NCBI RefSeq assembly: GCF_037975245.1
Contig: NC_092576.1
Coordinates: 7,961,001 to 8,025,000 of the forward strand
Origin: Apostichopus japonicus
Taxonomy: Eukaryota; Echinodermata; Holothuroidea; Aspidochirotida; Stichopodidae
Direction: 5' to 3'
DNA length: 64,000 bases
In this document: positions 24,409-64,000 of the stretch, in pieces
Layout of the letters: the number at the start of each line of letters is the position of its first letter
Position numbering within the stretch: position 1 is the first letter of the stretch
Program-made: the position numbers and the translations under genes
Notes under the pieces: model-generated
What the model was told of the DNA's origin: nothing
The model's database searches: none
Seen by the model: the letters and a program-made list of their open reading frames with translations, nothing else

Positions 24409-24599
24409 ACTGATTGTATGTCCAGAGGTTTGAATAATATAGTTGAGCTGTACATACAGTATTGTTCAAGTTAACACCCTGATGACAGGGATGGTGACAT
24501 GTTTACAGTAACTCTTTTCAATATGTATTTGCAAAGAACACCATTTGGACTGCAATTGTTTGCCAAAGGCTTGGGTACTTCAGCAAGTCCTACTAACCA

Positions 24600-25876
24600 G
24601 GTACTGTACAGACCTACATCACAGCATGTACTGTACAGACCTACATCACAGCATGTACTGTACAGACCTACAGCACACCATGTACTGTATATACATACCT
24701 ACAGCACAGCATGTACTGTGCAGACATACAGCACAGCATGTACTGTACAGACCTACAGCACTGCATGTACAGTACTGTACAGACCTACAGCACATCATGT
24801 ACTGTACAGACCTACAGCACAGCATGTACAGTACTGTACAGACCTACAGCATGTACTGTACAGACCTACAGCATGTACTGTACAGACCTACAGCATGTAC
24901 TGTACAGACCTACAGCACAGCATGTACAGTACTGTACAGACCTACAGCACATCATGTACAGTACTGTACAGACCTACAGCATGTACTTTACAGACCTACA
25001 GCATGTACAGTACTGTACAGACCTACAGCATGTACTGTACAGACCTACAGCACAGCATGTACAGTACTGTACAGACCTACAGCACAGCATGTACAGTACT
25101 GTACAGACCTACAGCATGTACTGTACAGACCTACAGCACAGCATGTACAGTACTGTACAGACCTACAGCATGTACTGTACAGACCTACAGCATGTACTTT
25201 ACAGACCTACAGCATGTACAGTACTGTACAGACCTACAGCATGTACTGTACAGACCTACAGCACAGCATGTACAGTACTGTACAGACCTACAGCACAGCA
25301 TGTACAGTACTGTACAGACCTACAGCATGTACTGTACAGACCTACAGCACAGCATGTACAGTACTGTACAGACCTACAGCATGTACTTTACAGACCTACA
25401 GCATGTACAGTACTGTACAGACCTACAGCATGTACTGTACAGACCTACAGCACAGCATGTACAGTACTGTACAGACCTACAGCACAGCATGTACAGTACT
25501 GTACAGACCTACAGCATGTACTGTACAGACCTACAGCATGTACAGTACTGTACAGACCTACAGCACAGCATGTACAGTACTGTACAGACCTACAGCACAG
25601 CATGTACAGTACTGTACAGACCTACAGCATGTACTGTACCTAGACCTACAGCATGTACAGTACTGTACAGACCTACAGCATGTACTTTACAGACCTACAG
25701 CATGTACAGTACTGTACAGACCTACAGCATGTACTGTACAGACCTACAGCACAGCATGTACAGTACTGTACAGACCTACAGCACAGCATGTACAGTACTG
25801 TACAGACCTACAGCATGTACTGTACAGACCTACAGCATGTACTGTACAGACCTACAGCACAGCATGTACTGTATAG
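24600..25876. repeat. 1.3-kb modular minisatellite with higher-order structure
   Basis: The array is built from a 22-bp core (words GTACTGTACAGACC and TACAGCAT) that can carry either, both or neither of two 5-bp additions (CAGTA and CACAG). Units are therefore 22, 27 or 32 bp. The CAGTA addition creates the 14-bp palindrome GTACAGTACTGTAC. A CTTTAC variant recurs at 24986, 25197, 25386 and 25685, which marks blocks of about 190-300 bp copied as groups. All three forward frames are open because no unit contains a stop, so the long frames are not evidence of a protein. Confidence 0.95.
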
Positions 25877-33400: not shown

Positions 33401-33992
33401 AGCAAGCAATGGGCTGGCATCGCCAAAGAATGTTTCACCAAAGCCGATAACTTTGGAATGCAGTTCCCGCTGGACTTGGATGTCAAAGTGAAGGGGACAC
33501 TTTTGGGGGCGCTGTTTCTAATCGAATTTATGTTCTTTGAACAGAAGAAGAATAACAACAACTAAAGCTAGATGTTCAAAAAAAGAGTTAAGATGTTATC
33601 TCACTTTTGTGTTTTGTGGCTGTTCACCCCTTGTCTGCACTTTTTGTTGACGCTTCATGTTGGTTGAGCTCTTTTCGTATATATGTGTTTGATAGGGGCG
33701 ATAATGTTAGCTCAAATGAATGAGATCTTACTCCTTAGCAACCTCCTTTTGTGCTAACCCATATCTTGTTCGCTTTTGTTTCTACGTATTCTTAAAGTTG
33801 ATGACGCTCGACGAATCGCAGCAGATCGGTAAGATCAGCAAGCAGTGGTCCGGCATCACCAAAGAATGGTTCACCAACGCCGACAACTTTGGAATTCAAT
33901 TCCCCATGGACCTCGACGTCAAAGTGAAGGGGACCCTCTTGGGGGCGCTCTTCCTAATTGAATTCATGTTCTTTGAGCAGCAAAACCAATAA
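27426..33992 (+). CDS. Phospholipid scramblase (PLSCR-B) with two alternative last exons
   Basis: Exons are 27426-27593, 28544-28687, 29579-29808, 30366-30486, then either 33362-33565 (5A) or 33798-33992 (5B). This gives 288 or 285 residues. What is seen: a Pro/Gln/Gly-rich N-terminus (1-56) ending QWMAPPP as in [14 protein letters not shown] at 108-115, a cysteine-rich cluster (C147, 148, 151, 152, 154, 157, 158, 161) matching the palmitoylation site, a Ca2+-binding-like loop around 247-260, and a C-terminal membrane helix (about 264-280). Family role is Ca2+-dependent scrambling of phospholipids. Phases 0, 0, 2, 0 match PLSCR-A. AATAAA at 34168-34173 lies downstream of both last exons; none lies between them. 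The ends use GT-AG sites throughout. Confidence 0.93.
27716..28000. repeat. Tandem 150-bp duplication in PLSCR-B intron 1
   Basis: A stretch beginning GTACCACTAAAATATTTTCT at 27716 is repeated from 27866 with small differences, through TGTTTTATTG. It is a simple local duplication within the intron. Confidence 0.8.
29125..29560. repeat. Pyrimidine minisatellite just upstream of PLSCR-B exon 3
   Basis: Eight or more copies of a unit of about 38 bp, CCCTCACTCACTCCCTCCCC plus CAGGCCTCAGTCCTTCC, fill the end of intron 2. Each unit contains a C/T tract followed by CAG|G, the consensus of a 3' splice acceptor. The real acceptor (GATAAG, 29573-29578) lies about 20 bp beyond the array. Confidence 0.9.
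30182..30218 (+). pseudogene. Fragment duplicated from the start of PLSCR-B exon 4
   Basis: The segment opens GGGAAGTAA and continues AAGGCCCATTATGAGATTC, matching the first ~34 nt of exon 4 (30366-30400) with a small insertion. It lies 150 bp upstream in intron 3, lacks the rest of the exon and carries an in-frame stop, so it is a dead exon scrap. Confidence 0.75.
30841..30930 (+). repeat. Two tandem copies of a 44-bp unit with GC-box and inverted CCAAT words
   Basis: Each copy has CCCCGCCTCCAAGTCT followed by GTAGCAGATTGGCTATG. The unit pairs a GC-box-like word with ATTGG (inverted CCAAT), as in many promoters, but it lies inside PLSCR-B intron 4. Any promoter role is speculative. Confidence 0.6.
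32985..33260 (-). mobile_element. tRNA-derived SINE in PLSCR-B intron 4
   Basis: On the minus strand the head contains CCGGTTCGAGTCACTCC (a B box) and a 21-bp tandem duplication around CATAAGGTCCCCGGTT. The body matches the plus-strand copy at 39287-39515, sharing TAATGTTTGTCGTCCAGTTA and TTCTTCGCGAGTTCCTGCTT. It ends in a TATG/TATA-like tail. It sits about 100 bp before exon 5A. Confidence 0.8.
33362..33565 (+). CDS. PLSCR-B alternative terminal exon 5A
   Basis: The acceptor TTATAAAG precedes TTGATGACC, and the exon reads [17 protein letters not shown] through [10 protein letters not shown] and a TAA stop (67 residues). It carries the Ca2+ loop version [13 protein letters not shown] and the membrane helix. 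An in-frame internal TTGCAG at 33372-33377 could be a second acceptor that drops five residues. Confidence 0.85.
   Translation: MMTLQESQEIGKISKQWAGIAKECFTKADNFGMQFPLDLDVKVKGTLLGALFLIEFMFFEQKKNNNN
33798..33992 (+). CDS. PLSCR-B alternative terminal exon 5B
   Basis: The acceptor CTTAAAG precedes TTGATGACG, the same context as exon 5A. It reads [17 protein letters not shown] through FFEQQNQ and a TAA stop (64 residues). The Ca2+ loop version is [13 protein letters not shown], and the cysteine of 5A (KECF) is a tryptophan (KEWF). Both exons are intact and splice in phase from exon 4, so they are probably alternative last exons or 5B is reached by skipping 5A. Confidence 0.85.
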   Translation: MMTLDESQQIGKISKQWSGITKEWFTNADNFGIQFPMDLDVKVKGTLLGALFLIEFMFFEQQNQ

Positions 33993-41505: not shown

Positions 41506-42451
41506 ACGTATTCGGAAGGATGCGCTACCTACTTCAACAATTTCATACAAATATTTACCACGTACCAGTAAAATCTTCCTAATATAAAACAACAATTTAC
41601 TCTCTGTAACGTGAAAGTTACAACTCCAGGATTGTTTTATTTTTCAATAAAATATCAATGACATAATTTTATCGCTTGAAGTTAATATATTGAGAAAATT
41701 TAATAGACAAACCAACGCAGGATAAGCGCATGGAAGTTATTCGGCTGGAATGACATAAAATATAATGCAGGTATATTGATATTAAACGTAATAACATCTA
41801 TAAAAATATGTACTCCGGCTAAAAGCAAATAATTCCATACTACTTCATCAAAAAATAGGAGTACGTTTTATATTTCTATATTAAATTTAATAGCTAGCAA
41901 AATTTATATTATAGTTTAGACATAGAACTTCATGAAGATGCAATCGTTGTCTTTACTGACGAAGTGAAGGAAAATCACCAAACATATGGAAGAAGGTCTC
42001 TGATATTTTGTGGTTGATTGTGTTTTTAAAACTGATTGTATACTTTTACAGAAACATAATGGTGAAAACGTTAATGTTCTTTTCCAACTATATTGGTTAT
42101 TATGCGACAATAACTGTATGTAAGAAGAAACGCCGGGCTGCAAGCAAAGTTTGAATTGCGTATATGAATTTAGTCGTGTAAAGGAATAGGCCTTCTCACT
42201 TACCTACAACTTCTGAATGTGCATTATTATGTGAACTCCCCCCTCTCGCCCCTTCCCCCCAAAGAAATGTGTCATGTCACATTCTTCCGTGGACAACATT
42301 TTTTTCATTGTCTTTAATTTTTTTTTCACATTCCGGACTCTCATCGTTGTATTGCTTTTGTCTGAAGGCAAGTTTTAATAAATTCGCTTATAAGTGTGAT
42401 ATTCGAGACTGCAAAACATTTTGAAAACAGTTGACATTGTAGGCCTACACC

Positions 42452-42756
42452 CAGGCGCGTAGCCAGGAATTTGCCAAGGGAGGGGCGACCCTGTAGGCAA
42501 ACTACCAGAGCCGTAGATTCTGCAGTGGAAACTATCCATGCGTGGCGCCACCATGAGTTGGCGCTACGAGTACAAGAATATTTTGGCTGAAATTGCCTCC
42601 CAGATTGCTGGAAAAGGCACTTCCCAGGCCTTGTAAGTTGCATCTAAGCTTGAAATGACTAGCGATATCATAAAAACATACAAAAAAATATGCACATGGG
42701 GGGGGACGGTCGCCCCCTTCGCCCCTAACCCCCCCCCCTTTTTGGCTAAGCGCCTG
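42452..42756 (-). mobile_element. hAT-type miniature element with perfect 8-bp target-site duplication
   Basis: It begins CAGGCGCGTAGCCAGG and ends GGCTAAGCGCCTG. The flanks are exactly CCTACACC on both sides (42444-42451 and 42757-42764). The interior matches 9331-9618 in inverted order. It is absent from the matching place in unit 2. Confidence 0.88.
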
Positions 42757-43043
42757 CCTACACCCTTAATGCAAGGTTCACGTGTACTAAATGCTGACAT
42801 TTGACATACCCGTTCTTTTCTTCATCTTCTTTTCAGATGAATTTTAATATGCATTGGGAAGGTCGTTAACTGCAGTTTTAATGAACTAAAAGACTCAACT
42901 TAGTCTAATATGAACAAACTGGACTGACTAAATGATACGTCATTTTACTTTCTGCCGTTCAGCTGTCAAGACTCAATTTTGTTTTTACTCAACTGTTAAG
43001 TTAAATATTTTAAATATTTTTCAATTAGGATAAATCTATCAGC

Positions 43044-44577
43044 ATGAATGTCCAACCATCCATTCCGAAGATTGCTGTCTGCATGGTTTGGCTTGTTTCT
43101 TATGCATATTTTTGCGAGTCTCAAGAAATAATAGCTGGTCTTCGATATGCCAAGAATTTTGGACCTAGTGGGAGATTTCTCGTTCAACGTTCACATCTTG
43201 AAGACGCTATCCAAGAGCTTGGCTTAGAAGGTAAGGAAATATCAAAAAGGACTGAAAAAAGTTGAGAAATCAGATTGTTTGTAACTATTACCGGATATAT
43301 GATTTGATATAATTCCACGTTTTAGATTCACTTCCTGGCAGCACATTGTCCGTTTTCAAGGGCCTTAACTCAGGAATTCACTCACCGATAAAGCAATTAA
43401 ATGTCTCTAAAGGTTGTTTTCTGCAAAGGCATACAATAGTCTCTAAAAGAAGCATCTCTATAATATCTCAAATGTTCACGTGAGATGTATCCTAATTGAT
43501 TAAAAGCTTAAGTGTTGCGTTTGATTCGTTCTTTGATTCTAATTTGTGATTATTATCAATAACAATGAACGTTACAAATTGTATGCTATCATAACTTGAT
43601 CCCTCGTATTTAAAGGTGATAGGATAACCATTTAAAACAACAATATCATACTATTTTGGTTTTGATATTAGGAACACAAAATTTGATTTGTTTGGTATTT
43701 TACATGTGTAGCAATCATGTCTAGTTTCAGCAACTTGATCATAAGACTGCATTGACTTTTGATTTATTAAGAAAACCAAAAAATAATAACATTAGACACA
43801 AGAACACTAACTGTTTGTTTTCTAAGATGAAATAATTAATTTATTGTTTTTCATGTAGGTATGGTTCAACTGTTGACATCTTCTGAGTACGATGATACCA
43901 TTGGTGAAGTAGCAGTTCAGGTGCAAAGTTGTACGGATCTGACCATTGCTGACGAACTCTCTACTTCCCAACAGGACCAGATATCCACTTCCGGGACCGT
44001 CCTTTTCATTGGTTTACCTGTTGTTTCCTCTGACAGCGGTGCCCACTTGTTAATCTCGATGGCATATTTAACTGACGCAGCAAAACCGTTATTAATTCCT
44101 TACATGACTAGTGCAGATGCAATTCAATATATTGACAGCATTGAAATGGGAGAAGATTACATCATCCTACGAGATAATGACGACGTAATGCGGATCAGTG
44201 TCTACCATGATCAAAATTGTGTTGATAACGAAGAACTGGGCAAGGATTTGGACAATTTTGTCGGGGGACACGACGTTCGTCTTTCTAACTATCCAGCGAA
44301 ATTCGACTGGGGTTGTGATAGTCTTAGGGATGACGTCAGTTTTTGTGAAGTCCTCGACCCTTTCATGTGTGCCATCCAGAGTACCAACGGCAACGTGTGT
44401 ACAACGATGTCAACAACTCTGTCAAGGAGATGTCTAGCAGATATGGAGATTGTCGAAATGACCGGGGTCTTTGAAGAGGCTGCCCCATTTCTGGCTAGTA
44501 AAGTTCCAACTAAAAGCTTTGAGGCTGGATGGATTATAAGAGAGCACGGTGTAGGCATTGTGTTTCCTTGCTTCTAG
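43044..44577 (+). CDS. Unrecognised secreted cysteine-containing protein, copy 1
   Basis: Two exons, 43044-43230 and 43859-44577, join in phase 1 to encode 301 residues. The GTAAGG donor and ATGTAG acceptor are clear. The N-terminus (K9, hydrophobic 10-23, cleavage near 24-26) is a signal peptide, so secretion is expected. The mature part has eight cysteines in exon 2 (C87, 183, 215, 225, 233, 243, 254, 300), an even number suited to disulfides, and is acidic. No N-glycosylation sequon of the N-X-S/T type and no membrane helix are evident. I do not recognise the family. A polyadenylation-type ATTAAA lies at 44648-44653. The gene converges on the C-type lectin gene on the opposite strand, and the same pair recurs downstream. 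The two-exon layout with a leader exon recalls some invertebrate immune effector genes in architecture only. Confidence 0.82.
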
Positions 44578-44653
44578 TGTCTCCTGTTTTACTTCTGTAA
44601 TAGGATTACCACGCACTACTCACCTGTAGTTTTTCTCAGAATCAATCATTAAA

Positions 44654-47600
44654 ACCGTGAGACATTTTTTTTCTGCCTCTTTTATTTATTACATTTTAGA
44701 GGGAAAGTAATTGTAAAAAATTATCATTGAAAGTAAAATCATAAATTACGGAAAGACATATGTTTCAAAATGATAGAATATAATAGTACGTCAGAAAAAG
44801 TATCAGCATGTTAAAAGTTAATGTCAAAATGCCAATATTGAATTAAGTATGTTTTCCACACAGCACACTAGATCGGTGCATGAACCTGATTTCTTTGATA
44901 ATTTTAACTATAATTAAATACATTTATTAGGGAATGCGTAGAATGACGTGGAACGCTATTATGATTCTGCAATCAACACTTGTATTCAACATGATAATAA
45001 ATTATTCCCACTGCATATTGTTTATCGCGTGATAATGTAAGTATTTTTCTTGTCTATAATTGTCTCCTTTCTATCTCTTGGTACCGCTGTTGAAATTTCG
45101 CTGAGACTCCAAGTCATGCATTTTTAAAACTCAGCCCTTTGACACGCTAAAATATAAATAACAAGTTCAGGGAAAGTGTTTAAACAAAACATTGTGTAAT
45201 AATTCACCAATGGCACCAAACGTGAGTGTGTATACGTGTTGTAGGCATCCATGTATCGGTGCAGATTGGTTGGAAAATTAGTTTTTTACTTGTGACTGTA
45301 ATGGACATGACCGAATTCACAGGTAAGACCTCTTTGCGACACGAGATGAGATGCCTTAAAGTCTCAACGTCTGTTTTCCAAATTTTAACTTCGACCTTTC
45401 CAGCTTACTGCCCTAAAAGCTCAGTAAAAATGACACCGTTCTATACAGTTTTCATAAAAAAAATGATTATTTTTATTGAATTATCTGTCGTTAAACATAT
45501 TAAGCTGAATAAAATTCGCCAGATTTTTTAACGAGTCCGTAGATTCTTCAAACTTCATTCAAACTTTGCAAGCCCCGCCCAACAGGTCGCGCGTAAATCA
45601 AATCTCTTTGTTTTGTTTACGACCATGAGGCCTGCGTGCTAGCCTGTGTTAGGTCAATTTTCTTGAACAGTGTATATCTTTCTTTCACCGTAAAATTGTG
45701 GACGAAAAGTGGATGATACGAGTATATATAGGTTTCACTTGTGTGATGAACATCCTGATATGGGCGGTCAGCAGTGATTTACGGTAAACCATTCCCGCCA
45801 GAAGCGCAATAGAAAATAAATAAAAGGCTGTTACAACAGTCAAGTCTGGATGAAACAAAAGCATGGATAAGTGACTTAGTCGACATTTGATCAAGATATT
45901 TGCGAATTTGGCTATTTTTTTCTGATAGCGAGTGCAGCAGAGGGGTAGATGTTATGAACATGTGGCACCAGTGTAAGTTTATAAATAGTTACAGGTGTGA
46001 CGTATAGGTTACTCTTGAATGTTCAAACTCTTGTCTATGACTTTCACGTCGTACCGATATCCATACGCAGATCCAGTGGGGTAAGGTGGGGTACAACTCT
46101 TTTTTTTCAGCCCCCATAAAAAAAAATAAAAGTAGATATTAGCACAACCTTGCATTTTAACCGTACCTGCCGTAATTATTCACCCAACTGAAAGCCTAAA
46201 AATGCCTCAAAATGAGTGTATCAGTTTCTTTGGCGGGGGAGATGGGCATGGAAACCCTCCACCCCTACATGAGAATCCGCTTCAACGACCTCAGGCCCTC
46301 CTCTTCAAAATGTTGCATCCACCACAGTTATCGCATTAAATATTTTCTCGGAGATTAGTATGAGTGTAATGGCTTAATGATGTGATATATATCACATAAA
46401 AGTTATAATACCGCTGACTGTGTAGTGTCCGAAAACTTTATGCAGATGTTTGGACATCCCTCTCTGGACAATGGTTCCGTCCATGCTAATTAGGGTGACC
46501 GTGCAGTGACCTTTTATAAGTTTCAACCCTTTATAGTGTTAATGTTTAAATAGTATTATCTAAAATATTTCTATCATTTGAGGTCAAAATTGTGGAACTT
46601 GGTTGAAAAATTATCGAGGTACAAGGATTGTCATAAGATCACGTATAAAAATTAGGTCCCCAAAATAGCTTTTTTTGATACATACATACCAATAGTAATA
46701 AACTTTTTGTTTTTGGTGTATTTTATGTTAAAGTAGTATTATATAAAATATTTCCTATCATTTGAGGCTAAAATTGTGGAAATTTGTTGAAAAACTGCGG
46801 ACACGCCCCCTCTATCAGGCTATACAATACATAAAGAAATCACGTATATACACCCACACATTGTGCAAGTTGTTCTTACAACAACGGATTGGTGGCGCTT
46901 TCCGATATTCATTGCTTTACTGTTATAAGGAATCATGTAAAGAACATAATATTTATTACTTTTTGAAAAGAGTTGTAGGGTGCGCGAAATATGATTTTTG
47001 GAAACTATGAAGTTTATTAACTGTTTTTCTGTTTTTGGACGGGTTTTAGGCGATTTTCCGAAGATATTGCAAATATCCAATTCTCTATAGCCCTGATCTT
47101 CCCAGGGTACTTTTTTTAAATGTGTTGGGCTTGTTGTAGAACATTTATGAAGGTGCTGGCCTGTATCTATGTGGCGCGTAGATTTGTTTGAAAGCAAAAA
47201 AGGTCACTTTTTGAATAGCACCCCCTAAAAGTAAATTTTGCGAAGGTACCATTTTTTTCAAAAGTTATATTTCTTTGGGGCATATTCCGACCAGTGAAAG
47301 GTCAAGGAAGTTGCCAGGTGGGACAAATCTCTCTCATTTACCTACCTATACTTTATGAGTTGTGTTAACCTGAATATCGAATATATGATGGAGAGTAGGG
47401 GTGACGGGTGGGGTGGGGGTGGTGGGGAAAGGTTGGTATAATGCTGTAAGATGGGAAGTGTCATAAACCTTCATGTAGCTAACAAATGCAATTGACATTT
47501 TGAGTAGAAGATGAATCAAACAACATGATTTCTCCCTGATATTATCAGCTGAAGGAATATCAGCAGTGATTCCAAATATGCCAGATTTTACTCGCACTCT

Positions 47601-48727
47601 CAACGTAGTTATCCACACTGAGGTTTATAATTGTCTATGGTCAAATAAATCGAGGATCAGAGCCTCTACAAATGTATTTCTAAAAGCTTCTATCATTTTT
47701 AGGTTGCTAAAGTTTGGGAATCAATACTGATGATCTTATAGCTACTGAACTGTTATCATTAGTCAGTGTTTTGTTTTACAGGTCAGGAGCCCCTGTAGCG
47801 TCGGGTAAAAGGTAAGGACTGTTCTAGGGTTGATTCGACGGATAGGCTTCAAAGAGTATCCATTTGAAATGTAACATGTCGCAATCTTGATGTCGAAGAA
47901 TAAGTTGTTGATTTCCATTAGCTTATTCTCTCCATCTTGGTGATATATAACTTTATGTAGGAATATCTTAGGGTTGGCTATGATGAGGTTACATAATTAA
48001 CTAAATATAACTTTAAACCAGATGTGTATGAGCACGTGAGACCTATTTCGTGCTCTTTTGCAACATCAATAAAGGAATCAGAGAATACAAACCACTTAAT
48101 TCCCATTTCTTCAATATTTTATGCCATTATGTTAAAGTATTGATGACAAATTAAAGTCTGGAGTAACATTGAAACCTACATGCAACTAATCATGCATTTA
48201 CCCTTCCAAAGACCATTAAAATTAAAAACGGAAGTGTAAACATATTTTTTAAACCTTCACAGAATATTGATTACAACTCGACAATGGTACAGTAAACAAC
48301 GTCCGCTAAAAACATTTTCTAATTTCAAATGATAGTCCAGAGGAAAAAAAAAAAGACTAAATATATTGATTATTCATCCAAGAAAAAAAATCGCTAGCAA
48401 TTTTTTACCATGCGTTTTCCAAATATTGCTAATTGTAGTTGTCACAGTTTATACCATATATGAACATGAAACAAACATTATAATGATGTCACAGTTGTAC
48501 ACCGATAAGCAACATGTTGTGTTTTCTTTACTTTTTAACTTATTTCTACTGGATTGGTTAGGGTTCGAATTTACTTAGAGAATGTGAAGTTATCAATTAA
48601 AACACAAATGGAGAACATCTTAAGGTATTTAAGACATTATATAAATTCGTCAGTGTGTGTCGCTTTTCTTAAAGTTCATATTTTGTGCAAAAACGTGTAA
48701 ACTTCAACTGTTTTGATCTAAAAAATC
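44654..48727. other. Intergenic within unit 1; no gene
   Basis: About 4 kb lie between the two convergent genes. Short open frames here and their counterparts in unit 2 are alike only because the whole segment was duplicated. Compared with unit 2, unit 1 lacks about 280 bp near 45810; in unit 2 that block is bounded by AAATAAA at both ends, which fits a short-homology deletion. Confidence 0.5.
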
Positions 48728-51914
<3,187 letters not shown>

Positions 51915-51990
51915 GATTCAGTCTTCTCAGGTGAGACGTAGAGGTCAGTAATCGAAAGTGAATTGTGAAGAAACGATGGCTTTGCTCAAG

Positions 51991-51998
51991 TTTTTATC
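51991..51998 (-). promoter_or_regulatory. TATA-like box of lectin copy 1
   Basis: On the minus strand GATAAAAA lies about 80 bp before the start codon and is kept at the same place in copy 2 (about 63809-63816). Conservation may simply reflect recent duplication. Confidence 0.35.
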
Positions 51999-52191
51999 TC
52001 TTTTGCATCTCCAAGTTTGCATAACTTTCATTCGGTGACGCGGAAGCGAATCAACCTTTAAAGGACAAGTTGACCATACAGCCTTGGCAATAGTGTTTAA
52101 GTGCTGGTTGTTTCTTTTGCTAAGAAGCCAGTCGCGGTACTAGTTTTAAGACAGCTGTATGCGTCAGGAGCGCTTGAATGAATATTATATA

Positions 52192-52971
52192 CAGTCACGT
52201 ATCCAGGGGGGGGGGCGTTGGGGCGGCGCGCGACCTCCGGGTAAGAAACAGAAGAAAGAAGAAAAGGGGGAAAACACTGGGGAAAAAATAGGAGGAAGGA
52301 GAGGAAGGAAGGGAAAAGAAAAAGAAGATAGAGAGAGAGAGAGGAGAAAAGGAGGGAGAAGAAGAAAAACGCAAAGACACCGGGAAGAGAAGGAGGAACA
52401 GTGACATAATTAAAGCGCTGATCCCTGTGTGCGCCTCACCCTACCCCTTACACCGACAACTCCATATTTGTCGTTTTCATTTTTCCTCTTTCACTAATGT
52501 ATATATATATATATATACTATATATGGTCTATCATAACGCGTGTGTGTGTATGGGCGCCTTAAAAAGTTGTACGATTGTGCTTGGCTGGTCTTGAACTCT
52601 ACCAAGTCGTCGGGGAACATGACGCATTTGGTATTAAACCAGGATCTGTATGCGAACTGCACTAGACCTATGTCCTTCGATTCAACACTGCCATCTCGAG
52701 AGAAAATGTTAAACCCTCAGACCTGAATGCTAATTGTTACCCAAACCTAGTACCGCAACTCTTACAATGAATATAAAAATAAATTCCGCATGCGATTGGA
52801 GAATTGAGAACATCTCCTGTCAATATAATGTAGTGGATCCAATGGCGTACCATGGGCGGAGGAGGGGGGGGGGCAGAAATGTTCTTGTTCGCTGCGCGCT
52901 AACCGATGGTCGCGCTCCGCTTGGATAGTAATTCGCGCCCCCCGGGTTAGAAAATCCTGGATACGGGCCTG
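52192..52971. mobile_element. Candidate inverted-repeat element between the two units
   Basis: The left edge CAGTCACGTATCCAGG and the right edge on the minus strand CAGGCCCGTATCCAGG form a 16-bp inverted pair with about three mismatches, each followed by a G-run. The interior has a GA-rich block (52245-52400) and a TA microsatellite (52499-52525). It stands exactly where unit 1 homology ends. Flanks are TA-rich, so no clear target duplication can be read. Confidence 0.55.
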
Positions 52972-53824
52972 TATATATTAGGCTTATCTGTGTAACACGT
53001 TGCTATAGCCCATGTTTTTTAAGCTGCCATACAGTCCTTTACTTTTTAAAGAAGCGAGGCTATATGTACCCTCATATGTGAATGGTTTTATGATTGCACG
53101 CATCTCTGAATCCATCTTCAAGTTCGATTATGTTTTTCTCCAGGCTTTTTGTTGACATCAAAATATAATGACATATAATTTTATCCATTGAAATAATATT
53201 TTGAGAACATCAATATATATACCAACGCAAGATAACCGCAGTGGAAGTTTACTCGACTGGAATGAAATAAAGCATCATGCATGATATTGATATTAAACGT
53301 AATAACATCTAAATAAATATGTACTAGATATAAAAGCGAATAATTCTTTATAACTTCATCAAAAATTGAGTATCGTTTATGGTTCACTATTCAAATTTGT
53401 AGCAATTAACATTAATGTTTTAGTTTAGACAAAGAACATCATGAAGATGCAATGTTTATTTTTATTGAAGTAGTAAAGGAAAATCAACAAATATGCAAAG
53501 ATGTCTGTTGCAATATGGTTGATTGTACTTTCAAAACTGATCGTATTCTTTTACAGATACTCTAATAGTGAAACTGTTTATGTTCTTTTCCAACTGTATT
53601 GGGCATTATTCGACAATAAATGTATTTAAGAAGAAAAAACCGGGCTGCAAGCCAGTGACGACTGAATTTATCAACTAAACTTACTCTAATATAAAACAAA
53701 CTGGACTGATTAAATGATACGTCATTTTACTTTTGCCGTTCAGCTGTCAAGACTCAGTTTTGTTTTTACTTAACTGTTTAGTTAAATATATTAAATATCT
53801 TTCGTTCAGGATAAGTCTATCAGC

Positions 53825-56349
53825 ATGAATGTCCAACGATCCATTCCGAAGATTGCTGTCTGCATGGTTTGGCTTGTTTCTTATGCATATTTTTGCGAGT
53901 CTCAAGAAATAATAGCTGGTCTTCGATATGCCAAGAATTTTGGACCTAGTGGGAGATTTCTCGTTCAACGTTCACATCTTGAAGACGCTATCCAAGAGCT
54001 TGGCTTAGAAGGTAAGGAAATATCAATAAGGACTGAAATAAGTTGACGAATCAGATTTTTGTAACTATTACCGGATATATGATTTGATATAATTCCACGT
54101 TTTAGATTCATTTCCTCGCAGCACATTGTCCGTTTTCAAGGACATTAACTCAGGAATTCACTCACCGATAAAGCAATTAAATGTCTCTCAAATAATACCT
54201 TTAAAATGCCCTTAAACTCCATCTCATGACCAAATATGTGTGACTAATATTTCTTGGTTATGCTATTGAAGTCTTTGATTACCTTAAATAGCAGTAACTC
54301 ATTTCTTTGTGTTTTTTAACTCTTTTTCTCGTTTATGGTTCTATAGTTAGTGGTATTTGTATTTTGTAAAGGGGTGTTTATGTTAATAAGTTACTCCAAG
54401 CTTCTTGTGAGCACTCCTCAGTCTCTTTAAAATTATCATATTCTGTGTATTAGTATGTTGTTTATTTCAAAATCATCTGAAATAAAGTTCTATGAATAAA
54501 ACAAAAAGAAACAAAATAGGATAAATTAATGTCATTACACTATGAAATCTAATCGTTGCCAAGACCATAAAATGCGTCCTAATACACAGACGTATATCAC
54601 GAGCTGCAAATCGCCCAAAATCAAATATGATTTTGTTGCTAGGATAGAGGGTCTCACATTCATAGTTCTACCTATACCATACTCTAGGTAGACTCACCAT
54701 GTTATCGACGAAATATTGTAACAACCAACTTTTGGCATATTCATTTACTGTCAAATCCTATTTCATACACTTACAACACATCGGAAACATGTTACTATAT
54801 TTTCTTAAGCTAAAGTGGTTGCATAACTTGTTAAAGTACTGTTTCAGTTTTCTCAGCAATTCTTAAATGCAAGTACTGTACCTTTTTTCCAAACTGCCAC
54901 TATTTAAGTGTCCATGTTTTGGTTAAATGCTGGTACATGTTTTATCAAACTTTGTCCAGGGGTACCGTCAGTAAGATATCTTGTGGTATTACTAAAAAGT
55001 ACAAAAAGATTACAACTTTTTAGAATGCATATTATTAACAATTTATCAAGTTGGTTTATACACAAAAACTAGTGAAAATAATTTTGTCGTTAATCGACTT
55101 GTAGAAACTTTAGACAGGTTTGCTAGCACCTCCCCATTGGATAACTGGCGCGTTTGCCATCTTTTTCATACATGACCAGTACCTCCAGTGTTGTTCCTCT
55201 GCTCTTCTGCACAGGCATACAATAGTCTCTATAATTTCTCAAATTTTCACACGAGATGTATCCTGTTTGATTAAAAGTTTAAGTGTTGCATATTATTCTT
55301 TTTTTCGAATCTAATTTGTGATTATTATCAATAACAATGAACGTTACATATTGTATGCTATCATAACTAGATCCCTCATATTAAAGGTGATAAGATAACC
55401 ATTTAAAATAATAATTTCATAGGTTTTTGGTTTTGATATTAGCAACTCAAAATTTGATTTGTTTGCTATCTTATATGTGTAGCAATAATGTCTAGTTTCA
55501 ACAACTTGATCATGAGACTACACTGACTTTTGATTAATTAAGAAATCCAACAAATAATAGCATAAGAAACACTTTAACTAACTGTATGTTTTCGAAGAAG
55601 AAAGTAATTAATTTTTTGTTTTTCATGTAGGTATGGTTCAACTGTTGACGTCTTCTGAGTACGATGATACTCTTGGTGAAGTAGCAGTTCTGGTACAAAG
55701 TTGTTCGGATCTGACCATTGCTGACGGACTCTCTACTTCCCAACAGGACCAGATATCCACTTCCGGGACCGTCCTTCTCATTGGTTTACCTGTTGTTTCC
55801 TCCAACAGCGGTGACCATGCGTTAATCTGGTTGGCACTTTTAACTGACGCAGCAAAACCGTTATTAGTTCCTTACATGACGAGTACAGATGCAATTCAAT
55901 ATATTGACAGCATTGAAATGGGAGAAGATTACATCATCCTACGAGATAATGACGACGTAATGCGGATCGGTGTCTACCATGATCAAAATTGTGTTGATAA
56001 CGAAGAACTGGGCAAGGATTTGGACAATTTTGTCGGGGGACAGGACGTTCGTCTTTCTAACTATCCAGCGAAATTCGACTGGGGTTGTGATAGTCTTAGG
56101 GATGACGTCAATTTTTGTGAAGTCCTCGACCCTCTCATGTGTGCCATCCAGAGTACCAACGGCAACGCGTGTACAACGATGTCAACAAGTAGGTCAAGGA
56201 GATGTCTAGCAGATATGGAGATTGTCGAAATGACCGGGGTCTTTGAAGAGGCTGCCCCATTTCTGGCTAGTAAAGTTCCAACTAAAAGCTTTGAGGCTGG
56301 ATGGATTACAAGAGAGCACGGTGTAGGCATTGTGTTTCCTTGCTTCTAG
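53825..56349 (+). CDS. Unrecognised secreted cysteine-containing protein, copy 2
   Basis: Exons 53825-54011 and 55631-56349 join in phase 1 to 301 residues, the same architecture as copy 1. The leader exon differs from copy 1 by a single base (P5R). Exon 2 differs by 30 bases by my hand count: six silent and 24 amino-acid-changing, altering 21 residues. Six changes fall within twelve residues (58-69 of the exon 2 part, about 121-132 of the protein). All eight exon 2 cysteines are kept. The intron is 1619 bp against 628 bp in copy 1 because of a block at about 54190-55200. ATTAAA at 56420-56425 is a likely polyadenylation signal. The product is probably secreted; function is unknown. Confidence 0.82.
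54190..55200. other. ~1-kb block present only in the copy 2 intron
   Basis: Copy 1 passes from ATGTCTCTAAAGG straight to TTCTGCAAAGGCATAC. Copy 2 has about 1 kb between the same words. No terminal inverted repeats, poly-A tail or coding sequence were seen, so it may be an insertion in copy 2 or a deletion in copy 1. Confidence 0.7.
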
Positions 56350-56425
56350 TGTCTCCTGTTTTACTTCTGTAATAGGATTACCACGCACTACTCACCTGTA
56401 GTTTTTCTCAGAATCAATCATTAAA

Positions 56426-59400
56426 ACCGTGAGACATTTTTTTTCTGCCTCTTTTATTTATTACATTTTAGAGGGAAAGTAATTGTAAAAAATTATCATT
56501 GAAAGTAAAATCATAAATTACGGAAAGACATATGATTCAAAATGATAGAATAAATCAGTACCTCAGAAAAAGTATCAGCATGTTAAAAGTTAATGTCAAA
56601 ATGCCAATATTGAATTAAGTATGTTTTCCACACAGCACACTATATCGGTGCATGAACCTGATTTCTTTGATAATTATAACTATAATTAAATACATTTATT
56701 AGGGAATGCGTAGAATGACGTGGAACGCTATTATGATTCTGCAATCAACACTTGTATTCAACATGATAATAAATTATTCCCACTGCATATTGTTTATCGC
56801 GTGATAATGTAAGTATTTTTTTTTGTCTATAATTGTCTCCTTTCTAACTCTTAGTACCGCTGTTGAAATCTCGCTGAGACTCCAAGTCATGCATGTTTAA
56901 AACTCAGCCCTTTGACACGCTAAAATATAAATAATAAGTTCAGGTAAATTGTGTAAACAAAACATTGTGTAATAATTCACCAATGGCACCAGTACGTGAA
57001 AGTTTATACGTGTTGTAGACATCCGTGTATCGGTGCTGATTAGTTGGAAAATTAGCTTTTTATTTGTGACTGTAATGGACATGACCGAATTCACAGGTAA
57101 GACCTCTTTGCGACACGAGATGAGATGCCTTAAAGTCTCAACGTCTGTTTTCCAAATTTTAACTTCGACCTTTCCAGCTTACTGCCCTAAAAGCTCAGTA
57201 AAAATGACACCGTTCTATACAGTTTTCATAAAATAATGATTATTTTTATTGAATTATCTGTCGTTAAACATATTAAGCAGAATAAAATTCGCCAGATTTT
57301 TTAACGAGTCCGTAGATTCTTCAAACTACATTCAAACTATGCAAGCCCCGCCAAACAGGTCGCGCGTAAATCAAATCTCTCTGTTTTGTTTACGACCGTG
57401 AGGCCTGCGTGCTATCCTGTTTTAGGTCTATTCTCTTGAATAGTATATATCTTTCTATCGGTCTTACCGATGTATCTTGCGAAATTGTGTTATTTCCTCC
57501 CATTGCAAGGACTAAACAGGTGTTTTCAGACGTTTCCTCCGTAAAATTGTGGACGAAAAGTGGACGATACGAGTATATATAGGTTTCACTTGTGTAATGA
57601 ACATGCTGATATGGGCGGTCAGCAGTGATTTTACGGTAAACATTCCCGGAAGAAAAGCAATAGAAAATAAATTCGTTCTTCCGATTGCGACAGCTTTTTT
57701 TCAATAAACCCACTTGGTCAGAGTGCATTTAGGATGAGAAATATTGAATCTGCTTCGGAAGTTTGTTTTCAAAATTCTTCAACAAACATATTTTCTATGT
57801 TGGTGACACCTATCGTGCATCATTTAGCTTGAGTAATTAGTATCAAATAAGTTTCGAGCTGGTGAACAGAGCTTTTCCCTATAGGACCTACTTGTAACAG
57901 TTCACTGGATTTGGTAAGCCGGAAGTCCAAATAAAAGGCTGTTACAACAGTCAAGTCTGGATGAAACAAAAGCATGGATAAGTGACTTAGTCGACATTTG
58001 ATCAAGATATTTGCGAATTTGGCTATTTTTTTTCTGATAGCGAGTGCAGCAGAGGGGTAGATGTTATGAACAGGTGTCACCAGTGCGAGTTTATAAATAG
58101 TTAAAGGTGTGACGTATAGGTTACTCTTGAAAGTTCAAACATTTGTCTATGACTTTCACGTCGTACCGATATCCATACGCAGATCCAGTGGGGTAAGGTG
58201 GGGTACAACTCCCTTTTTCAGCCCACATAAAAAATGAAAGTAGATATAAGCACAACCGTGCTTGTTAACCGTACCAGCCGTAATTATTCACCCAACTGAA
58301 AGCCTAAAAATGCCTCAAATGAGTGTATCAGTTTCTTTGGCGGGGAGATGGGCATTAAAAACCCAACTCCAACATGAGAATCCGCTTCAACGACCTCAGG
58401 CCCTCCTCTTCATAATCTTGCATCCACCACTGTCATCGCATTAAATATTTACTAATACAACATGATAACAAAATGTTGGAGGTAATTGAAATGTTTTCTA
58501 GAGATTGGTATGAGTGTAATGGCTTAATGATGAGATATATATATCACATAAAAGTTAAAATACCGCTGACAGTGTAGTGCCCGAAAACTTTATCCAGATG
58601 TTTGGACATCCCTGTCTGGACAATGGTTCCGTCCATGTTAATTAGGTTGACCGTGCAGTGACCTTTTATAAGTTTCAACCCTTTAAAGTGTTAATGTAAA
58701 AATAGTATTATCTAAAATATTTTCTATCATTTGAGGCTAAAATTGTGAAAATTTGTTGAAAAAATGACCGAAATATAAGGATTGTCATTAAAATTGCGGA
58801 CACGCCCCCTCTATCAGGCTATACAATACATAAAAAAAATCACGTATATACACCCACACATTGTGCAAGCCTTGTTCTTACAACAACGGATTGGTGGCGC
58901 TTTACCGATATTCATTTCTTTACTGTTATAAGGAAGCCTGTAAAGAACATAATATTTATTACTTTTTAAAAAGAGTTGTGATTTTTGGAAACTGTGAAGT
59001 TTATCAACTGTTATTCTGTTTTTGGACGGGTTTTTGGCGATTTTCCGAAGATATTGCAAATATCCAATTCTCTTTAGCCCTGATCGTTCCAGGTAGTTTG
59101 TTTTAGTGTGTTGGGCTTGTTGTAGAACATTTATGAAGGTGCTGGCCTGTTTCTATGTGGCGCGTAGATTTGTTTGAAAGCAAAAAAGGTCAAAATGTAG
59201 AACTTTCCCACTTTTTGAATAGCACCCCCTAAACGTAAATTTTGCAATCATACAATTTTTTTTTAAAGATATTTTTCTTTGAGGCATATTCCGCCCAGTG
59301 ATAGGTCAAGGAAGTTGCCAGGTGGGACAAATCTCTCTCATTTACCTACCTATACTTTATGAGTTGTGTTAACCTGAATATCGAATATATGATGGAAGGG

Positions 59401-60631
59401 AGGGGTGGGGGTGGGGGTGGGGGTGGGTGGTGGGGGAAGGTTGGTATAATGCTGTAAGATGGGAAGTGGCATAAACCTTCATGTAGCTAACAAATGCAAT
59501 TGACATTTTGAGTAGAAGATATCCACACTGAGGTTTATACTTGTCTATGGTTAATCAATTGGAGGATCAGAGTCTCTACAAAAGTATTTCTGAAAGTTTC
59601 TAGCATTTTTAGGTTGCTAAAGTTTGGGAGTCAATACTGATGATATTATAGCTACTGTCAGTGTTTTTTTTTATTACAGGTCAGGAGCCCATGTAGCGTC
59701 GGGTAAAAGGTAAGGACTGTTCTAAGGGTTGATTCAACGGTTATGCTTCAAAGAGTATCCATTCGAAATGTAACATGTCGCAATCTTGATGTCGACGAAT
59801 AAGTTGTTGATTTCCATTGGATTATTCTCTCCTTCTTGGTGATATATAACTTTATGTAGGAATATCTTAGGGTTGGCTATAATGAGGTTACATAATTAAC
59901 TAAATATAGCTTTAAACCAGATGTGTATGAGCACGTGAGACCTATTTCGTGCTCTTTTGCAACATCAATAAAGGAATCAGAGAATACAAACCACTTTATT
60001 CCCATTTCCACAATATTTTATTCCATTATGTTAAAGTATTGATGACAAATTAAAGTCTGGAGTAACATTGAAACCTACGTGCAACTAATCATGCATTTAC
60101 ACTACCAAAGACCATTTAAATTAAAAACGGAAGTCTAAACATTTTTGTAAAACCTTCACAGAATATTGATTACAACTCGACAATGGTACAGTAAACAACG
60201 TCCGCTAAAAACAGTTTCTAATTTCAAATGATAGTCCAGAGGAAAAAAAAAGACTAAAGATATTGATTATTCATCCAAGAAAAAAAAATCGCTTCTAGCA
60301 ATTTTTTACCATGCGTTTTCCAAATATTGCTAATTTTAGTTGTCACAGTTTATACCATATATGAACATGAAACAAACATTATAATGATACCACAGTTGTA
60401 CACCGATAAGCAACATGTTGTGTTTTCTTTACTTTTTAAATTATTTCTACTGGATTGGTTAGGATTTGAATTTATTTTGACAATGTGAAGTTATCAATTT
60501 AAACACAAATGGAGAACATCTTAAGGTATTTAAGACATTATATAAATTCGTCGGTGTGAGTCGCTTTTCTTAAAGTTCATATTTTGTGCACAAACGTGCA
60601 AACTTCAACTGTTTTGATCTAAAAAATCCAA
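56426..60631. other. Intergenic within unit 2; no gene
   Basis: Counterpart of 44654-48727. A G-rich (GGGGGT)n-like run lies near 59400-59440. Unit 2 lacks about 85 bp present at 47515-47605 of unit 1. No exon is recognised. Confidence 0.5.
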
Positions 60632-60932
60632 TTAAAGACATGGAAGTTTACAAATGAAAGGAAATTGATCGTTAGTGAATGTATGGACGTCCACCCATTG
60701 ACCATTGCAGTAACTTCCGCCGGAAAAGGCACCGTACCCATCAGGGTGGGCATTGGGGTCATTTCCGCACCAGTTCTGGTAGTCGTAGTAGGAGCCGTCC
60801 GTCCAGGCGGGTGAAACACCATCCTTTAATCGAAGACCTATGAAGACTTGGGGATTCCAGCCATCAGTAGCCTTTAAGGTAAAGCAAGTAATATCTCTTA
60901 TAACAGATATCATGGACAGGAATACGTGTATA

Positions 60933-60963
<31 letters not shown>

Positions 60964-63732
60964 CACATATATTACAAAGTTGGATTGATTATTTGTATTC
61001 AAACATAAGAAGGGAATTTAAAAGCTTGTAAGTTCCTTCTGTCTAAGATATTCAACTTTAAAACAATTCAAGTCCTTGGAATGATGCGCTAAAGTTAAAT
61101 TGGACTTGATTGCAGGTCTTAATATTAATGTTAAATTGATTGTTTTGTGACACAAACTGGAGTGATAACATTGATTTTAGCTGTGTACTGTTTGAGCAGC
61201 ACTTCAGGGGGTTAAATAGATTTTGAAAAGGCAACACTTAAATTCTCTATTGTGGAAACTTTGAATTATTTATTTTCATTTTGTAAATGGTTTAATGTAG
61301 AGGTTAAGGTTTCATTCACACTTTCCAGTTGCAAGGTCTTATTTTTTTTCGTCACTGTCATGTTTCGTAACATGTTATGTCGTGATATGAAACATTACTT
61401 TCTACATACTACACAATTTCTAAGTATTATAAAGCATTTTATTATCAGAACGTAACTGATGCATAACCCATTAATTTCTTTGATTAAATTTAAGGATCTC
61501 TTTTCATTATGAATTTTTCCTATGTGGTTTTATAAAGTGGGTCATGAAACCCCGATTCCTATTAAAAAGAGGACATACACCCATCCATGATTGTTAACTT
61601 ATTTGACCGATATTTGGAGAACAACTGACCTCTAAACAGATAAAAAACATTTTTCTCTGTTTGGGTGATATTCTACTTTAAAAAGTCTGTAAGCTGTAAG
61701 TCTGTGATTTCGTTATGCCACTAACATCTTATAAAAAACCTTTTCGATTTCTCTTTGATTTTCTCTTTATAATTGCAGGGTAGCATGTTAACAGTTTTGA
61801 AACCATTGCCATGATTAGATCATTTTAAGGGTTTGGATTTCTAAAAAACCCATGGCAACTCCGATACAGAAAATGAACATTAAAATAAGGAAATAATACC
61901 ATAAAAAAATGCAGTCCATGTGACTCTATGATGCCATAGTTTGACTTCATCAAATCTTCAGCGTTTGTGTAAAGGAACATTAATTATATGTGATCCCCAA
62001 GATTGAGTAAGATTTTTCTTAGCTGTTTGGGGAAGGTATTGATGACAGTGAGCACTATCAAGTAGACAAACAATAATGGCTTGATCGAGGTCTCTTTAAA
62101 CATTGCTGGATATTATAGTTACCCCTGGAACCATTGAAGCTAGGGCTTCATATTCCTCGGTTGAATGGACTGAAGCAAGATGTCCGAAACCATAAGGGCC
62201 TGGACTAAAATGTCGACACGTCGATTCTGCTTCTTCAAAGGTCTTAGGAGTATCGACGTATCTGTGACGGAATAAAAACGTAAAGTAGTTTTCATCGGTA
62301 TACAGGTTATTTTTACACGATGACATGTATATAAATTAATCAAAGGAGATTCTGTAAACCGTTACAACGATTCCCACTAAATAACGAAAACGAAAAAGTG
62401 TCTATTGACAAAGTTGTTTGAAATGGTTCTTGTTAAGTGTGTTTCTGGGGAGAATGGGATAGTTAAATTATGATGAAAGAACCAGTTATGTGTAAATTTG
62501 GTAATAACTAAACTTACAAATAATTGGTCGTCTATCTTTCTATGGGAAGGGAATCTACGAACAAGGACATTTTACAACGACATTCTAAGACTCAAAGAAG
62601 TTAAAGAGACTTTTCCACATTGTACGCGGGACTAAAAGTTTACTCAGTGCCTGTAAGACACCATAAAATAACTCGCCCTTCCTTTTTTTCTCGGGACTAT
62701 AGTCGTTGGATATATTAAGAGGCGGAAGATTACCTAACAGTCCTCGAGATATTTGCTGAAAACCTTGACCTATGTATAATATCCCTACTAAATGAGGAAG
62801 GTGGAAGATTGATCCATCAATCTGTTTACTCCATATTTCTTGGAGATATTTTGTCACATGAGCCAAAATATAAATGAGAATACCAAGGAGACATCCAAAT
62901 GATACAATTTGTGCTTAAATATCCGAAGAATTCCATTTATAAGTAGAACTTAGCTTTCGAATACACTGCTAACTGAAACATCGACACTTTTACATGTTAA
63001 ATTTTAGGAATCATTCATTCTTTGACGTAAATATCGAAGGCACCAATGTATGATGATTTTGATCAATGAAGCATTTGTATTTTGTAGCATTTTATGAAAT
63101 TTGAAATGATGTGCGAATTTGTATGAAATTGGTTCGTTAAAGAGATTATTACACGTTTAATATTTAAACAGACAACTATTGATGTCAAATGCCCCCAAAG
63201 CGGAATCAGCCGATGAAATACCTGTATTTGCTTTCGAAACAGCAAATTTAGAGAGCTTTAACCTTTTCATCGTTTTGTCTAAGATATTGTCTCGTATCTA
63301 TTCCATTCCGAATGGACTCTTCAGATGCACATACACCTGATCACACTGTCAGAGTCTCGAGGCAAGGCGACTAGTGTTGAGAGTGGATCAGTTAATTCGT
63401 TTGGTTTCCGTGCCCAGGCTCCCATCGTTCATTTCCGTGATGCTCGCCTGACGTTACGCCGTAATTATTCTCACGGTTATAATATCAATTTAAGTGAACT
63501 TTGGTTGAAAATTAAATAACTTGTTTGGTTATATGCTCATTCTCTAATATTGGTGAATTTTCTATAAGAAAATGAAATTAACTACAACCTATTTAACAAA
63601 ATGAAATATAATTTCTGCTTACTTGTAACAGCCAGAACCAGGAATTGCCATCCAGTCGGGGTAACAGGAACAAGCACTGCATCCTCCAAGGAGAGTTAAG
63701 GCAAAGACGACAGTGACCAGAGACAGAGCCAT
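60632..63732 (-). CDS. Secreted C-type lectin, copy 2
   Basis: Minus-strand exons 63732-63623, 62261-62123 and 60871-60632 (phases 2 and 0) encode 162 residues. It has the same signal peptide and single C-type lectin-like domain as copy 1. By eye, exon 2 is identical in the two copies. Differences elsewhere are few: V10F in the signal peptide, S87G, N137Y next to the conserved C138, three silent changes, and a stop one codon earlier so the final Glu is lost. As in copy 1, the penultimate conserved cysteine is missing and the Ca2+/sugar motifs are non-standard. It is probably a secreted recognition protein; the ligand is unknown. Confidence 0.92.
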
Positions 63733-64000
63733 GATTCAGTCTTCTCAGGTGAGATGTAGATGTTAGTAATCGAAAGTGAATTGTGAAGAAACGATGGCTT
63801 TGCTAAAGTTTTTATCTCTTTTGCATCTCCAAGTTTGCGTAACTTTCATCCAGTGACGCGGAAGCGAATCAACCTTTAAAGGACAAGTTGATCGTACAAC
63901 CGTGACAATAGTGTTTAAGTGCTGGTTGTTTCTTTGCTAAGAAGAAGCCCGTCGCGGTACTAGTTTTAAGACAGCTGTATGCGTCAGGAAAGCTTGAATG
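63733..64000. promoter_or_regulatory. 5' flank of lectin copy 2
   Basis: This stretch corresponds to 51915-52180 of unit 1 with few differences and should hold the promoter. It includes the TATA-like GATAAAAA on the minus strand about 80 bp upstream of the start codon. Confidence 0.35.

What the first reader, a model, noticed from the sequence alone, without database searches (positions are those of the whole stretch)
43044..56349. Undescribed two-exon secreted protein family with diversifying copies
Two tandem genes encode 301-residue secreted proteins that I cannot place in any family. In exon 2 I count 24 amino-acid-changing and 6 silent base differences over 717 nt. That is roughly 0.044 per replacement site and 0.034 per silent site, a ratio near or above 1. 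Changes cluster at residues about 121-132 (6 of 12). The leader exon and all eight exon 2 cysteines are conserved. This pattern fits a scaffold with a variable surface, as in immune or recognition effectors, but relaxed constraint is also possible.
Basis: partly seen in the sequence, partly recalled or inferred. Interest (0 to 1): 0.75.

Follow-up and report, generated by a model that had tools for sequence, protein, structure and literature searches.

The report
Large acidic secreted-protein family, sea cucumber
Two neighbouring genes in what is almost certainly the Japanese sea cucumber belong to a large, apparently unnamed family of acidic, cysteine-rich, probably secreted proteins with about 95 copies found in the genome; the two copies keep intact reading frames and show no proof of selection for change.

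Summary
Genes A (43044-43230, 43859-44577) and B (53825-54011, 55631-56349) each encode 301 aa in two exons, with 23.5 replacement and 6.5 silent differences in exon 2. They lie in a tandem duplication that also carries a C-type lectin.
'Diversifying' is not shown. The dN-dS interval spans zero. The divergent stretch starts in the intron (54 of 431 bases differ; background 5-6%) and runs into exon 2, so the cluster is at least partly mosaic divergence. The frame is maintained: no indel where 5.7-8 are expected. Four sampled paralogue groups give omega 0.40-0.58; some close pairs exceed 1, and positive-site signals are confounded by likely gene conversion.
The larger finding is a two-clade family: at least 79 intact exon-2 frames plus 16 partial or interrupted ones on 16 contigs, one array holding 22. 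All 54 sampled frames are acidic. Sampled members have no convincing match in Pfam, NCBIfam or PDB. Function is inferred only: extracellular binding, perhaps defence.

The parts
43044..43230 (+). gene A exon 1: leader with probable signal peptide (62 codons + 1 base)
   Evidence: hydrophobic stretch from about residue 9 (hydropathy only, no signal-peptide program); similar leader exons on C13 and C16
43231..43858 (+). gene A intron, phase 1 (GT...AG)
   Evidence: its 3' part 43412-43858 differs at 54 of 431 aligned bases from copy B
43859..44577 (+). gene A exon 2: mature acidic cysteine-rich domain and stop
53825..54011 (+). gene B exon 1
   Evidence: one residue differs from A (P5R)
54012..55630 (+). 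gene B intron; holds about 1 kb (54192-55204) without counterpart in copy A
55631..56349 (+). gene B exon 2: mature domain and stop
   Evidence: 91% protein identity to A
43412..44130 (+). raised-divergence stretch spanning intron end and first part of exon 2 (contains residues 121-132); limits chosen after seeing the profile
   Evidence: intron part 12.5%, exon part 7.7%, rest of exon 2 2.0%
41649..52180 (.). duplication unit 1
   Evidence: blocks 86-95% identical to unit 2, leftmost 0.5 kb 79%
53160..64000 (.). duplication unit 2, running to the window end
48728..51914 (-). C-type lectin copy 1, exons 51914-51805, 50436-50298, 48970-48728 (163 aa)
   Evidence: best PDB match sea cucumber lectin CEL-IV, E=4.8e-25
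60632..63732 (-). C-type lectin copy 2, exons 63732-63623, 62261-62123, 60871-60632 (162 aa)
   Evidence: 3 silent and 3 replacement differences from copy 1 in the first 162 codons

Best explanation
Shown: A and B are young tandem copies of one gene in a large family (at least 79 intact exon-2 frames and 16 partial or interrupted ones found) in a genome that is almost certainly Apostichopus japonicus. The product is a probably secreted, strongly acidic, cysteine-rich protein of about 276 residues after the likely signal peptide; in A and B a leader exon is joined by a phase-1 intron to one exon coding the rest, and relatives in the window's clade show the same acceptor place. The family grows by segmental and tandem duplication; array copies show signs of sequence exchange, and some copies are broken. 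Selection in the groups tested is on average purifying and moderately loose; the pair's ratio near 1 rests on few changes, many of them in an older or exchanged stretch, and does not demonstrate diversification. Inferred: the protein is a soluble, disulphide-held extracellular binder, for example in coelomic fluid or mucus, with copy number and loose constraint giving a varied set. Defence or recognition is my first guess (about 35%), conspecific signalling or gamete function and structural or storage roles come behind it.
For: Gene models; 0 indels in 906 coding bases against 71 in 8047 noncoding (8.0 expected, P=0.0003; 5.7 expected and P=0.003 if indels in low-complexity surroundings are set aside); coding divergence 31/906 against 441/8108 background, P=0.009 (that background still held 492 lectin coding bases, which makes it slightly too low); family searches and tally; the two clades joined by profile comparison, probability 99.2, E=1.6e-19 over 216 columns; tree; one-ratio omega 0.40-0.58 in four groups; acidity of 54 of 54 sampled frames; a phase-1 acceptor candidate at the homologous place in 24 of 27 window-clade frames by script, the place picked by eye; leader exons on C13 and C16; intron-and-exon tract; four-gamete violations in arrays; genome identity from sizes.
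Against: No transcript, proteome or structure was examined; secretion rests on hydropathy. M8 against M8a is nominally significant in three of four groups (P=0.0027, 0.0044, 0.011; the fourth 0.057) and M2a against M1a in two of four runs (C7 P=0.0005, C18 P=0.043, the latter partly an artefact; C1/C14 0.066, C1a 1), so some site-level positive selection may be real. Single close pairs exceed 1 (for example C12 1.22, C23 1.21, C7 1.53). In residues 161-301 of the pair dN exceeds dS (0.026-0.027 against about 0.005), on nine changes. No donor for the divergent stretch was found: the nearest paralogues other than A and B are 43-52% identical in protein. Four-gamete violations can also come from repeated mutation.
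Confidence: 0.6

Rival explanations
1. One reading: recognition or immune effectors under diversifying selection, with a conserved cysteine scaffold and a variable surface. (It overlaps with the functional guess above; the odds do not add to 1.)
For: Pair dN/dS 1.07-1.25 in exon 2; replacements at family-variable columns; a hot patch in the C7 array; nominal M8 signals in three of four groups; close pairs above 1 in C1a, C7, C12 and C23; a C-type lectin gene lies in the same duplicated unit.
Against: The dN-dS interval spans 0; the variable stretch includes intron; one-ratio omega 0.40-0.58 in four groups; 422 of 1596 (C18) and 171 of 496 (C7) informative site pairs fail the four-gamete test, a sign of exchange that inflates site tests.
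Confidence: 0.25
2. Relaxed constraint: redundant duplicates drifting towards loss.
For: Ratio near 1; 16 partial or interrupted places in the family.
Against: No indel in 906 coding bases against 5.7-8.0 expected; coding divergence below the background; all eight exon-2 cysteines kept; 79 intact frames. Absence of stop codons alone says little (P=0.33).
Confidence: 0.12
3. Waterborne or gamete signals comparable to the expanded ependymin-related proteins of crown-of-thorns starfish.
For: Probably secreted, cysteine-bearing, multiplied in one species; the starfish case is described in PMC9759900 and PMC6280359 (passages seen).
Against: No Pfam ependymin match listed for the 34 aligned members at E up to 1; more and differently placed cysteines. 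No expression data seen.
Confidence: 0.2

Closest known systems
SpTransformer (185/333) genes of sea urchins
   Same: Two exons with a leader, an intron and a variable exon 2; clustered copies from segmental duplication; echinoderm (PMC8634487, passages seen).
   Different: SpTrf exon 2 is a mosaic of 25-27 elements with imperfect repeats, and the genes are flanked by GA repeats; here exon 2 aligns as one colinear cysteine-rich domain. No SpTrf sequence was compared.
Ependymin-related proteins (PF00811)
   Same: Secreted, cysteine-containing, expanded in echinoderms (PMC6280359, passages).
   Different: No Pfam match listed in 34 members; median 213 aa with 4 or 6 conserved cysteines there, against 6-11 cysteines in the last 235 residues of 54 frames here.
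PSP94-like tandem genes of A. japonicus
   Same: Tandem genes with conserved cysteines in the same species (PMC5638244, passages seen).
   Different: PSP94 is a protein of 94 amino acids; no sequence was compared. The paper counts 74 tandem clusters of more than 5 repeats, so the arrays seen here may be among them unnamed.
C-type lectin CEL-IV
   Same: The neighbouring duplicated gene matches it.
   Different: It is the neighbour, not the family in question.

Membership tests
Ependymin-related (EPDR) | match to the Pfam ependymin profile | tested here: not met
   22 + 12 members scanned one by one, no PF00811 among the families listed at E up to 1
Ependymin-related (EPDR) | profile-profile similarity to A. 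japonicus EPDRs | not tested
   the genome search for PF00811 did not complete (first, last)
SpTransformer | two exons, leader then mature protein | tested here: met
   A and B; acceptor place and leader exons in relatives
SpTransformer | mosaic element and repeat structure in exon 2 | tested here: inconclusive
   exon 2 aligns as one colinear domain, but no repeat search was run on exon 2 alone
SpTransformer | sequence homology | not tested
   no SpTrf sequence was compared
the family described here | colinear domain with invariant C121, W151, C153, C163, C181, C192, P237-C238 (exon-2 numbering) | tested here: met
   A1, 22 sequences; C171 nearly invariant; the first cysteine of A and B (C25) is not invariant
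the family described here | second clade (C18, C7, C23, C3, one C19 copy) homologous to the window's clade | tested here: met
   hhalign of A1 (22) against A3 (12), E=1.6e-19
gene family under diversifying selection | dN above dS with the interval excluding equality | tested here: not met
   for the pair; one-ratio omega below 1 in four groups
gene family under diversifying selection | a class of sites with omega above 1 | tested here: inconclusive
   nominal signals in three of four groups, with signs of exchange between copies
immune effector | expression in coelomocytes or induction by challenge | not testable with these tools
   no expression data

The most novel reading that the evidence does not exclude
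A previously unnamed sea cucumber repertoire of about a hundred acidic secreted proteins, diversified by tandem duplication and gene conversion with selection at a few loop sites, used for recognition at the coelom or body surface: a holothurian counterpart in genome design, not in sequence, to the sea urchin SpTransformer system.
Probability: 0.2. Interest if true: 0.75.

Novelty: new variant of a known kind. Interest (0 to 1): 0.5.

Why it matters
About 95 places of a probably secreted family, sampled members of which have no convincing match in Pfam, NCBIfam or the PDB, would be a sizeable gap in the annotation of an economically important animal. Its arrays, broken copies and exchanged tracts make a natural case for how lineage-specific secreted repertoires grow, and existing coelomic-fluid or regeneration data sets could be re-read for it.

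Tried and rejected
Diversifying selection on the pair: not demonstrated. Pseudogene or free drift: disfavoured by the indel and divergence tests. Known-family placement: Pfam (best E 0.027), NCBIfam (best 0.05), PHROGs (120, 4 members, none at E 0.01), PDB by sequence (12, gene A, best E 0.14) and by profile (43, 77, none up to E 10). Close relatives in viral contigs (22; 7 stretches matched a peptide pattern, none confirmed), bacterial and archaeal genome contigs (23; 14 stretches, none confirmed) and plasmids: none; these searches reach close relatives only, and no other animal genome could be searched.

Literature: searches returned no paper; some returned listings (titles and starts of abstracts seen), none of which names such a family. 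Seen as passages: PMC10344927, PMC5638244, PMC6280359, PMC8634487, PMC9759900; PMC13228809 as outline with abstract (52) and passages (53). A text search cannot find an unnamed sequence, so absence from print is not shown.

Faults found on the way; a global alignment went wrong at 42101-43400 because of the 1-kb insert in B; searches replaced it. Searches counted 492 lectin coding bases as noncoding; one search recounted the indels without them (71 in 8047, differences 487), and the background of 5.4% becomes about 5.7% (433 of 7616 once the tract is taken off); the P values were not recomputed; the C18 M2a site list is partly an artefact of L048's different start; one search trimmed it. One search was a first tally (92 places) and mistook one broken C16 copy for full; one search replaced it.

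Rows dropped or sampled: the tree (97) leaves out L014 and L035; the C1 group (62, 63, 69) leaves out L035, so 10 of 11 C1/C14 frames of that group; C18 14 of 22; the C7 cluster 7 of 7; C23 4 of 7 full frames; the C23 group also held L043. One search printed at most 14 pairs per group and none for C18. A1 holds the open piece of L014, a copy split in two frames; the 54 frames include L014 and L035. The tally leaves out leader-exon matches and matches above E 0.001. The site models are my own code with FastTree branch lengths scaled together, not codeml.
Full report
Observation. Genes A and B are present as described: 301 aa each, two exons, phase-1 intron. Exon 2 has 30 base differences in 717 nt, 23.5 replacement and 6.5 silent; dN/dS is 1.07 at kappa 1 and 1.25 at kappa 2, and 1.13-1.31 for the whole gene. 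The bootstrap 95% interval of dN-dS for exon 2 is -0.027 to 0.041. Six of the 21 exon-2 replacements fall in residues 121-132; with random placement a 12-residue window that dense has P=0.013.

Setting. Self-comparison shows a tandem segmental duplication, corresponding points 10.8-12.2 kb apart, from 41.6-52.2 kb to 53.2-64.0 kb, 86-95% identical in its blocks (79% in the leftmost 0.5 kb) and cut by the window end. Besides the gene it carries a three-exon C-type lectin on the minus strand; the joined protein's best PDB match is the sea cucumber lectin CEL-IV, E=4.8e-25, while its exons one by one gave only a sub-threshold Pfam Lectin_C match. The lectin copies differ at 6 of the first 486 coding bases, 3 silent and 3 replacement. 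Copy B's intron holds about 1 kb that A lacks.

Organism. The window lies in an assembly of 671,581,487 bases in 35 contigs. Contig 16 has 46,036,110 bases and contig 23 has 18,203,763. The published A. japonicus assembly is given as 671.60 Mb, chromosomes of 18.21-46.02 Mb, 34 scaffolds (671,643,915 bases) (PMC10344927, passages). The totals differ by some 60 kb and the contig count by one, so the species is an inference from sizes, backed by the CEL-IV-like lectin.

Selection on the pair. Background divergence in the duplication, outside genes A and B and the intron tract, is 441 of 8108 bases (5.4%); without the lectin exons about 5.7%. The 3' part of the intron, 43412-43858, differs at 54 of 431 (12.5%, P=6e-8 against the first background); the first 272 nt of exon 2 at 21 of 272 (7.7%, P=0.0004 against the rest of exon 2; not tested against background); the rest of exon 2 at 9 of 447 (2.0%, below background, P=0.0007); the 3' flank at 40 of 1108 (3.6%). 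The limits were chosen after seeing the profile. The clustered replacements thus sit in a stretch that is also divergent in noncoding sequence; in residues 63-160 dN/dS is 0.80-0.93. In residues 161-301 dN exceeds dS (0.026-0.027 against about 0.005), on nine changes. The coding sequence as a whole differs less than background (31 of 906, P=0.009) and holds no indel, where 71 in 8047 noncoding bases predict 8.0 (P=0.0003), or 5.7 (P=0.003) if 20 indels in low-complexity or homopolymer surroundings are set aside. The frame is maintained; neither strong diversification nor free decay is shown. Absence of stop codons alone is uninformative (P=0.33).

The family. A protein search of the genome gave 88 matches at E up to 10, leader exons and weak ones included; searches with three relatives gave 58, 59 and 40 at E up to 0.001. 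Merged by hand, without leader exons and matches above E 0.001, they make 95 places on 16 contigs: 79 with an open frame of at least 230 aa and an uninterrupted match of at least 170 residues, and 16 partial or interrupted. One of the 79, C1:6252241 (L035), loses the family's C-terminal end. By the tool's own statement such counts are lower bounds, and two further query types did not complete. The C18 array holds 22 copies in 108 kb, in part with a period near 14.7 kb. A tree of 52 frames has two main clades of 25 and 27; A and B group with a C13 copy (100/98; a long branch, place unsure) and then with three C16 copies (94/84). The clades are homologous by profile comparison. In 22 window-clade members cysteines at exon-2 positions 121, 153, 163, 181, 192 and 238 are invariant and 171 nearly so. 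All 54 sampled frames are acidic: median net charge -23 in the last 235 residues (range -29 to -9), pI 4.06-5.17. A codon boundary of the form xxA|Gxx, a phase-1 acceptor candidate, stands at the homologous place in 24 of 27 window-clade frames (not in L013, where it would fall on the stop before the frame, nor in L014 and L034, whose printed stretch does not reach it); such boundaries also occur elsewhere, so the place was picked by eye. Leader exons similar to the window's (41-53% identical) were read at four places at C16:11.46-11.52 Mb and one on C13; the GRFL(V/L)Q(R/Q)S-LE core is shared by the four C16 ones and loosely by C13.

Selection in the family. Pairwise group means of dN/dS are 0.74 (C1a), 0.57 (C1b/C14), 0.29 (C12), 0.33 (C16rel), 0.54 (C18), 0.62 (C7), 0.34 (C23 with L043) and 0.29 (C19), and 1.30 for the window pair; single close pairs above 1 are L025-L027 1.06, L025-L032 1.02, L036-L037 1.22, L041-L058 1.53, L041-L061 1.10 and L040-L063 1.21 among those printed. 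One-ratio omega is 0.40 (C1/C14), 0.48 (C7), 0.58 (C23) and 0.48 (C18) on trimmed alignments, 0.40-0.64 before trimming. M8 against M8a gives P=0.0027, 0.0044, 0.057 and 0.011; M2a against M1a gave 0.066 (C1/C14), 1 (C1a), 0.0005 (C7) and 0.043 (C18, partly artefact). The C7 signal rests mainly on one patch of adjacent codons. Four-gamete violations are 422 of 1596 pairs in C18, 171 of 496 in C7 and 1105 of 18145 in C1/C14, so exchange between copies is likely and the site tests cannot be trusted as they stand. The window pair's replacements prefer family-variable columns (20 of 21 scored, P=0.027 one-sided), with 5 of 20 in the most conserved third.

What it is not, as far as tested. Pfam lists no match better than E=0.027 for 34 members, NCBIfam none better than 0.05 for 22, PHROGs none at 0.01 for 4, PDB none by profile and only E 0.14 or worse for gene A. 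No close relative in viral contigs, bacterial and archaeal genomes or plasmids. Ependymin membership is not supported by Pfam; the sharper profile test did not complete.

How it most likely works. Shown: a hydrophobic leader, a maintained cysteine-rich acidic domain, copy number growth, signs of exchange between copies. Inferred: secretion, disulphide bonding, soluble extracellular binding. The specific role is open; I put defence or recognition first at about one in three. Conspecific signalling, storage and matrix roles remain.

Noticed in passing
48728-51914 and 60632-63732, minus strand: Duplicated three-exon C-type lectin related to CEL-IV; copies of 163 and 162 aa.
   Followed up: partly
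5761-8431 and 28516-33980: Inverted repeats, blocks 81-95% identical, about 20 to 28 kb apart.
   Followed up: no
9328-9618 and 42452-42759: Inverted repeat, 76% identical; the second copy lies in a 0.7-kb stretch of duplication unit 1 (42146-42892) that has no counterpart in unit 2.
   Followed up: no
24586-25876: Minisatellite array open in three plus-strand reading frames.
   Followed up: no
24339-24411, minus strand: tRNA-Tyr(GTA) candidate.
   Followed up: no
15894-16286, minus strand: Reverse transcriptase fragment (RVT_1, E=7.6e-16).
   Followed up: no
54192-55204: About 1 kb in copy B's intron without a counterpart in copy A.
   Followed up: no
43291-43411 (query 248-368): Part of intron A has 75-84% identical copies at 12 other places listed (C1, C7, C18, C21, C23), besides the copy in B: a dispersed repeat.
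   Followed up: no
L066, L067 (C16:11463350-11477300): Leader-exon relatives for which one search lists no exon-2 match within 35 kb; the leader may be shared with other genes, or the exon 2 is lost or diverged.
   Followed up: partly
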